The notes below the pieces were generated by a model. The model did no database searches and was not told where the DNA came from. It worked only from the letters and a program-made list of their open reading frames with translations. 22,182 nt of DNA from Chloroflexota bacterium. GTDB lineage: Bacteria > Chloroflexota > Anaerolineae > UBA4142. Both the position numbers and the translations under genes were made by a program. This document shows positions 233 through 4,181 of the stretch, one piece after another. The DNA lies in assembly GCA_023380675.1 (NCBI GenBank), contig JAMCRS010000155.1, positions 1 through 22,182 on the forward strand. The letters run 5' to 3'. Within the stretch, counting starts at the first letter, position 1. Each line of letters begins with the position of its first letter.

Positions 233-787
233 CTAAGGTCGACTCGCTTTCAAAGGGGCCAATGAAATTGCTTCCCAATCTGAAGCGATCAGAAGGTTCT
301 TGCTGCTGTTGGATGGATCGTTCGTCTTGAGCGCGATCTGGAACAGATGCTTGCCTTCCATTCCCGCGTGCATCATGAATTCGGTGTAGAGGGTGGTGGA
401 TTCGCCGGGCCGCAGCGTCGTCTGACCGACGACGATGTCCGGCGGTCAGCAGCCTTCCAGAAGCGTGGCGACACGCGGCACATCCAGTTTGAGCGTGCCG
501 TCACCTGTGTTCTTGATGTTAAAGGCGGCACGCACGGTCCGGTTCAACGGTTGGAGGCCCAGGTCGATCTGATCGTGATCGACCTGCAGGCGCGGCGTGC
601 CGTCAGCCTGTGCGGCCGAGGGGTTGGACCGCGCATACCACGTCGTCGCGGCCACGACGAACAGGACGAACGCGGCGGCGATCAGTGCGACAACCAGCTT
701 CAATTTGTTCTTGCGGCGCTCTTGTGCCCGGCCCTGCTCGCGTCGCGTGACGCGTACCTGGGTCCGACGCATGGGTTTGTCTGACAT
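233..787 (-). CDS. DUF1573-like Ig-fold membrane-anchored protein with in-frame UGA; candidate selenoprotein
   Basis: Read through the UGA at 448-446, this encodes 184 residues. It has a basic cytoplasmic tail (1-30), one membrane segment (about 31-50) and an extracytoplasmic Ig-like domain of the DUF1573 type (about 65-184). The domain shows family hallmarks on both sides of the UGA: LGLQPLNRTVRAAFNIKNTG before it, and LRPGESTTLYTEF, HAGMEGKH and LKTNDPSNSSK after it. Residue 113 is Cys, 114 is the UGA and 115-116 are Pro-Pro. From memory, relatives have Gly-Cys-Cys-Pro-Pro here, so the UGA replaces the second Cys. The tail is open for 70 codons to TAG at 233-235, with no frameshift. The start is an ATG at 787 behind a strong AGGAGG, 12 bp after the CuA-cytochrome gene. 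Terminating at the UGA would lose half the Ig fold. Alternatives are a nonsense mutation or a C-to-A base-call error. Its function is unknown; a role in metal or thiol redox chemistry is inferred from the operon. Confidence 0.8.
404..448 (-). promoter_or_regulatory. Candidate bacterial SECIS element (UGA plus downstream hairpin)
   Basis: Immediately after the in-frame UGA (448-446) the minus strand can fold an upper stem CGTCGTC (434-428), loop GGTCA (427-423) and stem GACGACG (422-416), seven uninterrupted GC-rich pairs. A lower helix is possible between GCCGG (443-439) and CCGGC (408-404), or between CCGC (445-442) and GCGG (413-410). The GGUC loop motif starts 18 nt after the UGA, which matches the E. 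coli fdhF SECIS as I remember it. No bulged U is seen in the stem, unlike E. coli. The Val-Val and Thr-Thr codons (GTC GTC and ACG ACG) are complementary by themselves, so part of the stem could be a codon-usage coincidence. Confidence 0.6.
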
Positions 788-799
788 TCATCCTCCTGG

Positions 800-1798
800 C
801 TATGGACTCTGGCTCAAGCCGTAGTCGAATACAAACGATCGAATGTAACTTGTCACAGCGCCGATGTCCTGGTCGGCGTATAGCGATCTCCACTCGGGCA
901 TGCCGGTCCCCATACCGCCGCGCAGGACCTTGCCCTGCAAAAGCGCGTCGCTGGCACCGAGCATTTGAGACGCGTCGCCGAGGTCCGCCGGACCGCGCCG
1001 GGCGCCGGGGTCTATCGCCGCGCGGCCCGGAAGCTCGCGGCCCGCCGGACCGTCGCCCGCGCTGGACTCGCCGTGACACGCTGCGCAGTCCCGTGCGTAA
1101 AGCTGCTGCCCTCGCGCGATCGCCGCGTCGCCGGCGGCACGTTTCCACTCGAACGCGATCGCATCCCACAACTGCGTGTCGCCATAGGAGCTCAGCGCCC
1201 GCTCGGACCGCAGCCGCGCGAAGACGTCGCTCGGCGATTGCGTTTGAGTGTCCGCGTCGATCGCAATTGGGTTGGCGAGCGTCGCGCCGCGGGCCGCGGA
1301 CGGGCGTGTCGACGGCAAATTCTGCGCCGGGTGCGGCTCGTCGATGTCAAGTTTGAGTTGCTGGTAGAGCGGAGGCGCCGTCGTGGGCAATACCGGCGTT
1401 GGATTCTGCGGATCGACGACCTCGATCACTCCACGCATTCGCCAGTGGTCGACGCTGCACCAGCGCGTACAGGCGAAGGGAAATCGTCCAACGCGCGAGG
1501 CGACGAATTCGACCTCCTGCACATGGCCGGGCAAGATCTCGTCCACCTTGATGCCGAGCGCGGGCACCACGAATCCGTGGACCACATCGGGTGACGAGAT
1601 GCGAAGGCGCACCCGCTCGCCCAGACGGACGCGAATCGTATCGGGCTGCCAACCGCCGTCGGCCGGTACGTTTGCCGTCAGGTCTATCACGCGGACGCCC
1701 GCCGCGTTCGTCCGCCACGCCTGATACGCAAAGAGCGATGCGGGAAACCCGATGACGATGACGATGACGACGAGCGCGGCGAAGAGCTCACGATTCAA
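800..1798 (-). CDS. CuA-type cupredoxin fused to a c-type cytochrome domain, membrane-anchored
   Basis: The protein has 332 residues: an N-terminal membrane anchor (about 5-27), a cytochrome-oxidase-subunit-II-like cupredoxin domain (about 35-130), a linker rich in Pro, Thr and Ser, and a cytochrome c domain (about 225-325). The cupredoxin carries the full CuA ligand pattern: His74, then Cys110-x3-Cys114-x3-His118-x2-Met121. The cytochrome has CAACH at 238-242 and a likely axial Met at 300 (GTGMPEW). It should pass electrons between a CuA centre and haem c outside the membrane. Oxidase subunit II usually has two anchors and partner subunits, and none is encoded nearby, so this is a free-standing CuA-cytochrome. 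The start is TTG at 1798 with GGAGGG about 9 nt upstream. It lies 47 bp after the polyferredoxin gene and 12 bp before the DUF1573-like gene, and is clearly operonic. Confidence 0.9.
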   Translation of the reverse strand: MNRELFAALVVIVIVIGFPASLFAYQAWRTNAAGVRVIDLTANVPADGGWQPDTIRVRLGERVRLRISSPDVVHGFVVPALGIKVDEILPGHVQEVEFVASRVGRFPFACTRWCSVDHWRMRGVIEVVDPQNPTPVLPTTAPPLYQQLKLDIDEPHPAQNLPSTRPSAARGATLANPIAIDADTQTQSPSDVFARLRSERALSSYGDTQLWDAIAFEWKRAAGDAAIARGQQLYARDCAACHGESSAGDGPAGRELPGRAAIDPGARRGPADLGDASQMLGASDALLQGKVLRGGMGTGMPEWRSLYADQDIGAVTSYIRSFVFDYGLSQSP

Positions 1799-1845: not shown

Positions 1846-3209
1846 TCACACATACAATCCAACGAACGCCAACGTGAACAGGGTGCAAAAACCGATGATC
1901 GGCAGCGCTGCGAGCGGCGGCACCCGTTGTTCGCGCGCCGTGCGGACGGTGACCGCGATCGCCCCGATCAGACCCACGAGCAGTATCGGCACCTGTAGCG
2001 TCGACTGCCAGCCCGCAAGGTACGGGGTCCACGGCCAATTCGCGGTACCGTTCAAGTTCCATCCCCAGCCGAATGGATCGGATACCACCGGCCACGCGTA
2101 CGACAAATTGGTCGTGACGAAAGAGAGACTGAACGCTGCCCAGGCGGCCAGCCCGAGCGGCACGAGCGCGTAGGCATGATCGACGAAGAACCGACGGGTC
2201 GACAGGTTCGCGCGTCCCAGTTTCTTGGCGGCGAGAACACAGACGAGAAATATCCCCGGCACGACGGCGAGGTTTATGGCGAGAAAGGCGGCCGCGTAAA
2301 TCCACCAACTGGCCGTGCCGACGGCGTATGCGGTCTCGCGGAGAATCGCCCAGGGACCGGTCAGGACGATCGAGTAGGCGAGCGCGCACGTCAGCATGAT
2401 GAACGCCTTGTACGCTTCGTCGAGACGGCGCCCTTGGCCGCGAGCAGGTCCGCGCCGAAGGGACGCACGAACACGCCGACGTTGTCGAGGGGGCAGGTTT
2501 TCAAGCATTCGGTACAGAGGCCGCAGTACGTGTTCTTCTCGAGCGCGCCTGGAAACACCAGCCACGGGCAGCCGTAGCCGGCAGCGCTGCCGACGTAGCA
2601 CGTTTTTTGCTTGTGCGTCATGCACACCGCTCGGTCTCGCGCCCGGATCTCGACCGGTGCGAGCTGGGAGTACAGACCGATGAATCCGCCGACCGGGCAC
2701 AGGTAGCGGCAGAAGGTACGGCGCTCGAACAGCAGGCTCGTGCCGACTGCCATCGCGGCAAAGAGCGCGAGCACGAGTGCGCTGACCGATGGAGTGGTCA
2801 GAATCACGACCGAGAACAAAGCGACGGTGAGAAAACTTGCGCTCTGCAGCCAGATGTTGGCGAGCCTCCGCGGCCACTTGAGGCCGAGTGTGTAGAGCCG
2901 GCCGCCCCGGCGCGGCTCCACCAATGCCCTGCGTTGAAGCCACTCGCCCGGCGCGGGGATCGGGCAGATCGCGCACCACAGCCGGCCGCCCAAGGGCAGC
3001 AAGAGCAGGATGAGGAAAGCCCACCATACGACCCAGACAAAGACGATGCCAAAGTTGCGGCTGCCCGCGGGTGTGCCGAACCCGCCGGCGAGGATGGCGA
3101 GCAGGAACACGGGCAGCGTGATGGCGATCATCGACCACTGCAGCCAACGGCTGGTGAGGATTCGTTTGACGATCGGTTCGCGTGTTAGTTCTATACGACG
3201 ATAAGACAT
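1846..3209 (-). CDS. NapH/NosR-like membrane 4Fe-4S polyferredoxin, interrupted by a single-base frameshift
   Basis: After correcting one missing base this is a protein of about 454 residues with several membrane helices and ferredoxin clusters. The first frame runs from ATG 3209 and shows CAICP (about 79-83), CRYLCP and CGLCTECLKTCP, typical of NapH/NosR/CcoG-like membrane ferredoxins that move electrons across or along the membrane. Near 2431-2433, in a run of three C on the plus strand, the frame slips. Uncorrected, it ends at a stop at 2391; the adjacent frame continues with five to six hydrophobic segments to TGA at 1846. One extra G in the run joins the halves smoothly (AAKG then RRLDEAYK). 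A sequencing indel is likely, and a true mutation is possible. I chose ATG 3209, which gives a 64-bp gap after the upstream cupredoxin gene; an in-frame upstream start at 3305 would overlap that gene and adds no recognisable sequence. Confidence 0.82.
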
Positions 3210-3273
3210 TAGGCTAATCGGATCGGATGGACCCGTGTTGGCGCAGCGGCGGACGACATCCGGCGCACCCGTC

Positions 3274-3735
3274 TCACGCTGTCCAGAAGAAGAGGCTCGC
3301 GCCAACGGCGACGAGGAGCGTTATGGTGATGGCATGCGCCAGCGGGAGATCCGGCTCCACGGTCAGCTCGCCGATCATGAAAGGGTGAAGCGGGCCGCAA
3401 GTTACCGAACAGCGAAACCTGAACGCACCGATCTTGTCCGCCACAAACGTGACGTCGGCGGTCTTGCCCGGCTCGGCCTGCATGTCCACGCCGTATCCGT
3501 CGATCGACAATCCGTGCGACGCATCGAGCGATTGGAAATGGATCGTAACCGTATCGCCGCGTCGAACAGCGATCGTCGCCGGCTCAAAGGCGAACTGCCG
3601 CGCGTCGACCTCGAATGTGACAGCCCGGGGACTCGCCGTCGCACCGGGCAGCGGCACAAAGATCGCCGCAAGGGTCAACAGCACGACGCTCGCGGCAATC
3701 AATGGTTTCTGGCGGCCGCGCAATTGTCGAATCAT
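3274..3735 (-). CDS. Membrane-anchored CuA-type cupredoxin (COX2-like periplasmic domain)
   Basis: This encodes 153 residues. There is a signal anchor (about 11-30), a cupredoxin domain (about 38-127) and a second hydrophobic segment at the C-terminus (about 132-152). The CuA ligand set is complete: His74 in DASHG, then Cys109-x3-Cys113-x3-His117-x2-Met120. The C-terminal anchor and small size set it apart from oxidase subunit II. Its ATG at 3735 overlaps the TGA of the PCYCGC gene by one base (TGATG), so the two are probably translationally coupled. With the CuA-cytochrome fusion, this is the second CuA domain in one operon, which suggests dedicated copper or electron relay chemistry. A nitrous oxide reductase or oxidase accessory role is possible but no catalytic subunit is in view. 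Confidence 0.88.
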   Translation of the reverse strand: MIRQLRGRQKPLIAASVVLLTLAAIFVPLPGATASPRAVTFEVDARQFAFEPATIAVRRGDTVTIHFQSLDASHGLSIDGYGVDMQAEPGKTADVTFVADKIGAFRFRCSVTCGPLHPFMIGELTVEPDLPLAHAITITLLVAVGASLFFWTA

Positions 3736-4181
3736 CAATTCACCGGCTGGTTGGGCGGTCCATATTGGCTGTAAGTCGAGATAATGGCGGCGCGGATCGC
3801 CGGCGGCGCGCGCCCTTCGCGCGTCATCCGCATTACGTCCTGCGTGATGTCGACGCATACGCTGCAACCGAGCGCGTGGTCATCGAACACAATAGCTCCA
3901 TCGGCTTTCGCCTCATTGACGTAGCATGAATAGTTGCTCGTATGTCCCATCGCACCGCAGCCGCAGTAGCACGGCACGTTTGTGAGCGCGTCGGGATTGG
4001 CGACCGCGAACTGGTACGCCTCGCGCACGCGCGTCGGCGCGTTCTGCATTTCAACGGGAAGCGCGGACATGGGTGCCATCTTGAGCTCATGCGCGGGATT
4101 TGCCGCGCACGCGGTCGTCAACAAAGCTGGAGAGAACAAGAACACAAACAGGACAAGGGACAAGATGCGGCTCACGCTCAA
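3735..4181 (-). CDS. PCYCGC-motif exported protein
   Basis: The protein has 148 residues with an N-terminal signal sequence (about 5-25); a Cys at 25 may be a lipid-attachment site, though the lipobox (TTAC) is not ideal. The core carries the name-giving motif PCYCGCG at 70-76, followed by His80, Cys86 and a second pair Cys106/Cys109 (GCSVC), then a helical C-terminus ending in a Pro/Asn-rich tail. PCYCGC-motif proteins are a recognised family of uncharacterised exported proteins of Gram-positive-type bacteria. The dense Cys/His suggests metal binding, copper being plausible from the neighbours. It sits 34 bp after the TlpA-like gene and overlaps the next gene by one base. The family call is firm and the function is inference. 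Confidence 0.88.
   Translation of the reverse strand: MSVSRILSLVLFVFLFSPALLTTACAANPAHELKMAPMSALPVEMQNAPTRVREAYQFAVANPDALTNVPCYCGCGAMGHTSNYSCYVNEAKADGAIVFDDHALGCSVCVDITQDVMRMTREGRAPPAIRAAIISTYSQYGPPNQPVN

What the first reader, a model, noticed from the sequence alone, without database searches (positions are those of the whole stretch)
233..787. Candidate selenocysteine at the second Cys of a GCCPP-type motif in a DUF1573-like protein
The gene reads Gly-Cys-UGA-Pro-Pro and then stays open for 70 codons with family-like sequence on both sides (NIKNTG before, PGESTT and LKTNDP after). From memory relatives have a vicinal Cys-Cys-Pro-Pro here. A Cys-Sec pair on an extracytoplasmic Ig-like domain in a CuA/thiol operon would be a selenoprotein I have not seen described. 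Seen: the UGA, the open frame, a strong ribosome site, no indel. Known: Sec typically replaces catalytic Cys. Inference: readthrough. Several other genes here end in UGA, so the code is not generally reassigned.
Basis: partly seen in the sequence, partly recalled or inferred. Interest (0 to 1): 0.95.

Follow-up and report, generated by a model that had tools for sequence, protein, structure and literature searches.

The report
Cys-selenocysteine protein in copper operon
A bacterial gene in a copper-handling gene cluster has a UGA 'stop' codon in its middle that is predicted to be read as the rare amino acid selenocysteine next to a cysteine, and because dozens of relatives keep a UGA there and, wherever it was examined, the same RNA hairpin after it, protein databases have likely been recording a whole family of selenium proteins as broken stubs.

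Summary
Confirmed and strengthened. The 184-codon frame 787->233 (-) has one in-frame UGA (446-448, residue 114, GCUPP), then 70 open codons. All 28 strong relatives in 400 genomes of a Chloroflexota relative's phylum carry in-frame TGA, as do 80 of 82 in one order; the other two read TGT and TGC. Wherever the exact site was read it is the same GC^U position. A hairpin 12 nt past the UGA has bacterial-SECIS geometry in 31 of 31 sites examined, with compensatory changes in 4 of 6 pairs, and is degraded in both Cys forms. Sequence after the UGA is under purifying selection (dN/dS 0.07-0.15 in the two main groups). Four named Chloroflexota relatives have tRNA-Sec(UCA), SelB and SelD; three have SelA. 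So it is very likely a selenoprotein. DUF1573 selenoproteins were already predicted (OS_HP2, motif UGC), but here Sec sits elsewhere (vicinal Cys-Sec), the OS_HP2 cut-off is missed, and the 119-family catalogue I read lists no such form: a new subfamily. Function is inferred: a membrane-anchored Ig-like thiol/selenol protein serving copper (CuA) assembly. Selenium incorporation itself is untested, and the window's own genome is not held.

The parts
233..787 (-). selenoprotein gene, 184 codons read through the UGA: predicted N-terminal membrane helix, then an Ig-like domain
   Evidence: translation; PF22544 34 bits against a cut-off of 25.5; AlphaFold2 mean pLDDT 88.4, pTM 0.60
446..448 (-). 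in-frame UGA, residue 114, predicted selenocysteine, next to Cys113
   Evidence: same codon position in 29 related loci read in detail
417..433 (-). SECIS-like hairpin: stem 433-428 with 422-417, loop GGTCA 427-423, starting 12 nt after the UGA
272..595 (-). Ig/PapD-like domain, residues 65-172
347..373 (-). residues 139-147, MHxGMxGxH; Met143 and His147 invariant in 17 aligned rows, Met139 and His140 in at least 90%; possible metal ligands (inferred)
792..797 (-). AGGAGG, likely ribosome binding site
   Evidence: sequence
800..1798 (-). CuA-domain/cytochrome c protein, 12 nt upstream of the selenoprotein gene
   Evidence: PF00116 and PF00034; upstream of the relative in 16 of 27 loci
1846..3305 (-). 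Fe-S membrane protein (Fer4_5; NosR/CcoG-like by my own naming), split over two frames in the window
3274..3867 (-). cupredoxin-like protein
   Evidence: PF13473
3735..4181 (-). PCYCGC-motif protein, present in 19 of 27 related loci
   Evidence: PF13798
4216..4917 (-). TlpA/ResA-like thioredoxin-fold protein, possible reductant (inferred)
   Evidence: PF00578, PF08534, PF00085

Best explanation
This gene carries an in-frame UGA at codon 114 that is very likely decoded as selenocysteine, with a hairpin starting 12 nt downstream as the likely SelB signal, which would give a membrane-anchored protein whose Ig-like domain bears a vicinal Cys113-Sec114 pair. Shown here: the UGA, its fixed position in relatives, the covarying hairpin, purifying selection on both sides of the UGA, Cys at the same site in homologues without the UGA, and selenocysteine machinery in relatives' genomes. 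Inferred: that selenium is really inserted in this host. Inferred and least certain (about 0.4): the outward-facing Cys-Sec pair, together with the conserved Met/His motif MHxGMxGxH, handles copper or the thiols that receive it, keeping the CuA centre of the neighbouring CuA/cytochrome c protein reduced and loaded, and is itself reduced by the TlpA-like protein of the same cluster.
For: Fixed UGA: 28 of 28 and 80 of 82 strong matches carry in-frame TGA; 49 of 122 listed homologues are stubs ending at the residue before it. Hairpin: 97.2% of cells paired on 30 sequences, 4 of 6 pairs with changes on both sides, 0 of 500 shuffles reaching the percentage paired or the covariation score; 31 of 31 sites have the same spacing, a stem of at least 5 of 6 pairs and G-U at loop positions 2-3, against 35 of 15,209 other TGA trinucleotides that meet the stem and G-U criteria. 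A covariance model built without the window's subfamily finds the window site at E 2.8e-4. Synonymous positions of codons 5-9 after the UGA do not vary in either main group. Both Cys forms read as DNA have 4 of 6 pairs and no G-U, while all 22 Sec rows of the same run have 6 of 6. dN/dS after the UGA 0.148 and 0.072, much as before it. tRNA-Sec(UCA), SelB and SelD in 4 of 4 named relatives, SelA in 3 of 4. Copper role: CuA/cytochrome c just upstream in 16 of 27 loci and PCYCGC in 19 of 27; conserved Met/His motif.
Against: No peptide, 75Se or read data. The window's host genome is not held. tRNA-Sec is common in the phylum (305 of 400) and not significantly enriched in carriers: 18 of 21 against 287 of 379, Fisher p 0.43; of the three carriers without a match one has SelB over the cut-off, two do not. 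The window's 39-nt and 28-nt stretches fold no better than shuffles (z -0.99, -0.93), the 48-nt one somewhat better (z -2.08). The 45-nt fold of L004 is -7.3 kcal/mol, just short of the model's -7.5, and in L052 and L053 the minimum-energy fold is not this hairpin. Copper role: 11 of 27 loci showed no CuA neighbour (some contigs are short), and one divergent Sec relative (L133) lacks the Met/His motif.
Confidence: 0.88

Rival explanations
1. Sequencing error or a decayed gene: the UGA is an accidental nonsense codon.
For: The window has a frameshift in a neighbouring gene and one relative (L068) is frameshifted after the UGA, so some error or decay exists in these contigs.
Against: The same UGA recurs in many genomes and subfamilies, with purifying selection after it.
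Confidence: 0.02
2. The UGA is read as another amino acid, for example Cys by a suppressor tRNA, and not as Sec.
For: Cys is what homologues carry at the site; suppressor tRNA-Cys(UCA) is something I recall from the literature, not from a call.
Against: Ordinary tRNA-Sec genes with anticodon TCA, full-length SelB and SelD in 4 of 4 relatives; a covarying hairpin of SECIS geometry has no role in this reading. I did not search for suppressor tRNA-Cys.
Confidence: 0.03
3. Dual product: the UGA often ends translation and a 113-aa anchored stub without the second half of the Ig domain is made on purpose, with Sec read-through depending on selenium supply.
For: Sec insertion competes with termination (general knowledge, no call).
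Against: The stub would end inside the Ig fold, between strands 108-111 and 117-120 of the model, and selection is as strong after the UGA as before it.
Confidence: 0.1
4. It is a selenoprotein, but its job is not copper: for instance a general thiol/disulfide or peroxide-reducing partner of the PCYCGC protein, or a binder of other soft metals.
For: The PCYCGC partner is commoner (19 of 27 loci) than CuA/cytochrome c (16 of 27), and L081-L088 gave no CuA match in the stretches searched. The review holds that most uncharacterised selenoproteins are likely redox proteins, and ties several transport-linked ones to mercury or arsenic.
Against: In the window and in 16 of 27 loci it directly follows the CuA gene; the window cluster holds cupredoxins, P-type metal ATPases (my naming from the sequence) and a Fer4_5 membrane protein.
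Confidence: 0.45

Closest known systems
OS_HP2 / DUF1573 selenoprotein (NF041425, PF07610), predicted by Zhang and Gladyshev 2007; that paper is not held, and I saw only table rows in PMC2398784, PMC9312934 and PMC13188914
   Same: Distantly related domain (NF041425 19 bits, E 0.0013, aligned over residues 84-169) and a predicted Sec in its Cys motif.
   Different: Listed Sec motif is UGC or UxC; here it is GCU. Score far below the curated cut-off of 100, and 0 of 400 genomes of the phylum have a match over it. The register is unsure, but in neither alignment I considered does Sec114 fall on the listed Sec.
Ig-like HYDIN/CFA65/VesB domain (PF22544) and the DUF1573-like structure 2qsv
   Different: A shared fold shows no function, and I read nothing that gives these structures a Cys-Sec pair.
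Mammalian thioredoxin reductase, C-terminal Gly-Cys-Sec-Gly (recalled; only a search listing seen)
   Same: Vicinal Cys-Sec after a Gly.
   Different: Different fold, position in the protein and partners; an analogy only.
Other catalogued CU-motif selenoproteins (SaoL, SaoC, HgcA, MbdU, KCU-star, Csac_0668 family) in PMC13188914 Table 1
   Same: Adjacent Cys and Sec.
   Different: Listed under other domain models; none is listed as PF22544 or DUF1573.

Membership tests
Bacterial selenoprotein | in-frame UGA with homology on both sides | tested here: met
Bacterial selenoprotein | Cys homologues aligned at the UGA | tested here: met
   73 of 122 listed homologues contain GCC; TGT and TGC in two genomes
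Bacterial selenoprotein | bSECIS model as quoted in PMC13188914: 3-9 nt loop, 4-16 bp stem, G in the first two loop positions, loop 16-37 nt from the UGA, MFE at most -7.5 kcal/mol | tested here: met
   window: 6 bp stem, 5-nt loop GGUCA, 18 nt from the UGA, 45-nt fold -24.0 kcal/mol; geometry in 31 of 31 sites, energy of the 45-nt stretch in 30 of 31 (L004 -7.3)
Bacterial selenoprotein | selA, selB, selC, selD in the same genome | tested here: inconclusive
   window's genome not held; relatives: selC, selB, selD 4 of 4, selA 3 of 4
Bacterial selenoprotein | selenium found in the protein | not testable with these tools
   needs mass spectrometry or 75Se
OS_HP2 family (NF041425) | score over the curated cut-off of 100 bits | tested here: not met
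   window 19 bits; L001 22.5, L002 18
OS_HP2 family (NF041425) | Sec motif UGC/UxC | tested here: not met
   sequence reads GCU; motif as listed
DUF1573 (PF07610) | gathering score 26.1 bits | tested here: not met
   20.6 bits, E 0.00046; one homologue, P0015, is pre-annotated with it
HYDIN/CFA65/VesB-like Ig domain (PF22544) | gathering score 25.5 bits | tested here: met
   34 bits, residues 65-165

The most novel reading that the evidence does not exclude
A widespread, unannotated Chloroflexota selenoprotein family in which a selenolate-thiolate pair on an Ig domain, with Met/His ligands, acts as an extracytoplasmic copper carrier or reductase for CuA: selenocysteine used as a copper-handling residue outside the cytoplasm, with Sec, not Cys, the usual state of the family in sequenced genomes.
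Probability: 0.3. Interest if true: 0.85.

Novelty: new variant of a known kind. Interest (0 to 1): 0.66.

Why it matters
It turns a set of database stubs (49 of 122 homologues listed) into one likely selenoprotein subfamily, shows an Ig-like scaffold bearing Sec at a second position, and places selenium in a conserved copper/CuA gene cluster of Chloroflexota, where its role can be tested directly.

Tried and rejected
One search translated the wrong strand. A pattern scan of genome contigs with the window protein alone found nothing; the alignment of stubs gave 11 loci, of which L008-L011 are other families. Rfam on the window: nothing at gathering scores. selC enrichment in carrier genomes: not significant. 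RNAalifold on 8 close sequences preferred a pairing that includes the UGA; on 30 diverse sequences it returned the downstream hairpin. The register between GCU and the canonical CGC is unsure: MAFFT puts Cys113 on the first Cys of CGC, anchoring by eye on the PGE that follows puts it on the second; in neither does Sec114 fall on the listed Sec. NF041425 in 400 genomes gave no true OS_HP2 to compare with. Tree of 31 Sec and 66 Cys forms: 2 label changes (about 26 in shuffles), the Cys rows beside one group of Sec rows, but few columns, many open forks, long branches and no root, so I claim no direction of change. The 2007 source paper is not held.

Full report
Observation. The minus-strand frame 787->233 is 184 codons long with one UGA, codon 114, in LLEGC-UGA-PPDIVVGQTTLRPGE, and ends at TAG. 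UGA is a stop elsewhere in the window: 11 of 24 ORFs that I listed end in it. No whole genome is held for the window.

The UGA is a family trait. The first database search gave 22 proteins, 15 of which, the window's own stub included, are 103-125 aa long and end exactly at ...GC. After a second search with an alignment, 122 distinct proteins were listed: 49 end in GC, 73 contain GCC, none is otherwise (the second search listed its best 120 of 966 hits). Seven loci in four named Chloroflexota MAGs have TGA at the same codon. In 400 genomes of the phylum of G001 (the genome of L001, titled Chloroflexi) 26 have a match, and all 28 matches with E <= 1e-20 carry in-frame TGA. In 301 genomes of the order of G009, partly the same genomes, 80 have a match; of 82 matches with E <= 1e-20, 80 carry TGA and two carry no stop. 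Those two read TGT and TGC at the site. The exact site was read in 29 loci (L039, which repeats L001, included) and the window, and in L004, L059 and L068; all are GC^U. One more distant relative, L133, reads SC^U.

The hairpin. Counting from the first base of the UGA, positions 16-21 pair with 27-32 around a 5-nt loop. On 30 sequences (A5; L039 as a repeat, L059 and the frameshifted L068 were not in it) 97.2% of cells pair and 4 of 6 pairs change on both sides; 0 of 500 shuffles reach the percentage paired, the number of cells with double changes or the covariation score; sliding the partner lowers the pairing to 10-67%. Two of the five measures were not decisive: pairs with double changes (47/500) and further pair types (500/500). 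Cells count sequences, not events, and several rows are near copies. With L059 added, 31 of 31 sites have G-U at loop positions 2-3. Among 15,209 other TGA trinucleotides of 28 sequences, 35 have at least 5 of 6 pairs plus that G-U. A covariance model built from 21 sequences outside the window's subfamily puts the window and seven sister loci in its first eight places (window E 2.8e-4); a ninth hit, L007:5533-5604, follows at 0.028. The geometry agrees with the published bSECIS model as quoted in PMC13188914 (passages); the energy criterion is met by 30 of 31 45-nt stretches, and in L052 and L053 the minimum-energy fold differs. In the two Cys forms the stem falls to 4 of 6 and the G-U is gone, while all 22 Sec rows printed in that run (21 places, since L108 and L111 are one) have 6 of 6; of 40 loci given to the script, 24 passed its filter.

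Coding. In the window's group (9 sequences, 36 pairs) dN/dS is 0.148 after the UGA and 0.155 in the 50 codons before it; in the second group (12 sequences, 66 pairs) 0.072 and 0.106, saturated pairs left out. Two single pairs gave 0.122 and 0.305 after the UGA, the latter on very few changes. Third positions of codons 5 to 9 after the UGA, where the hairpin lies, do not vary in either group (codon 9 of the second group is Met, which has no synonym).

Machinery. The four named genomes have tRNA-Sec over the Rfam cut-off with anticodon TCA, full-length SelB, and SelD; SelA in three. Across the phylum tRNA-Sec is found in 305 of 400 genomes and in 18 of the 21 with a strong UGA form, which is no significant enrichment (Fisher p 0.43). 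Of the three without it, G125 has SelB over the cut-off; G133 and G263 do not. Of the two Cys-form genomes, G642 showed no tRNA-Sec at E <= 1e-7 and G542 did.

Protein. A predicted long N-terminal helix (8-53), read by me as a membrane anchor, precedes an Ig/PapD-like domain (mean pLDDT 88.4, pTM 0.60). PF22544 passes its cut-off, DUF1573 does not. Best solved fold: 2qsv. Besides Gly112, Cys113, Sec/Cys114 and Pro115, Gly142, Met143, Gly145 and His147 are among the invariant columns of 17 selected rows.

Neighbourhood. Window cluster: P-type metal ATPases (my naming from the ORFs), cupredoxins, TlpA-like, PCYCGC, Fer4_5 membrane protein, CuA/cytochrome c, selenoprotein. In 27 related loci searched with the window's proteins, a CuA/cytochrome c match lies just upstream in 16 and a PCYCGC match is present in 19 (counted from its listing; several contigs are short).

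Mechanism. SelB-dependent Sec insertion is the only reading I know that explains the fixed UGA, the hairpin, its spacing and the Cys counterparts together. The function is inference from location, the Cys-Sec pair and the Met/His motif; I give the copper role about 0.4.

Known and new. PMC13188914 (outline, passages, and section 7 parts 1-2 of 3, which hold its Table 1) lists 119 families or subfamilies, one of them a DUF1573 protein with motif UGC, and treats different Sec positions as distinct subfamilies. PMC9312934 and PMC2398784 (passages) list the same family. Searches for OS_HP2, for DUF1573 with selenoprotein, for Chloroflexi selenoproteins and for DUF1573 with copper (titles and abstract starts only, apart from the three papers named) showed me no GCU form. 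This covers only the held open-licence library. I therefore call it a new variant of a known kind.

Noticed in passing
window 2391-2430 (-): The Fer4_5 membrane protein is one open frame in L003, L005 and L069 but is split over two frames in the window: a frameshift, real or from assembly.
   Followed up: partly
L083:10255-10677 (-): A TlpA-like gene close to the selenoprotein relative has an in-frame TGA in its Trx-like motif (WATW-UGA-GWC), a second Sec candidate at that locus.
   Followed up: no
L031-L034: selD of all four named Chloroflexota genomes carries one in-frame TGA, as known Sec-containing SelD does.
   Followed up: no
L001, L005, L065; L003, L004; L006, L007: Genomes hold two or three copies of the gene: three in G001, two each in the CAIKBD and JACQYF MAGs.
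   Followed up: partly
L068:1501-1827: A second copy in G116 keeps the UGA but is frameshifted after it.
   Followed up: no
L133:81-380 (-): A divergent relative in G019 reads SC^U with one TGA but lacks the MHxGMxGxH motif; it matches the OS_HP2 model at 36.6 bits and may be intermediate.
   Followed up: partly
window 3735-4181 (-): The PCYCGC protein belongs to PF13798, which PMC13188914 lists as a selenoprotein family too (OS_HP4, UxxC); here the motif has Cys.
   Followed up: partly
L007:5533-5604 (-): Ninth-ranked hit of the hairpin model (15.9 bits, E 0.028), not examined.
   Followed up: no
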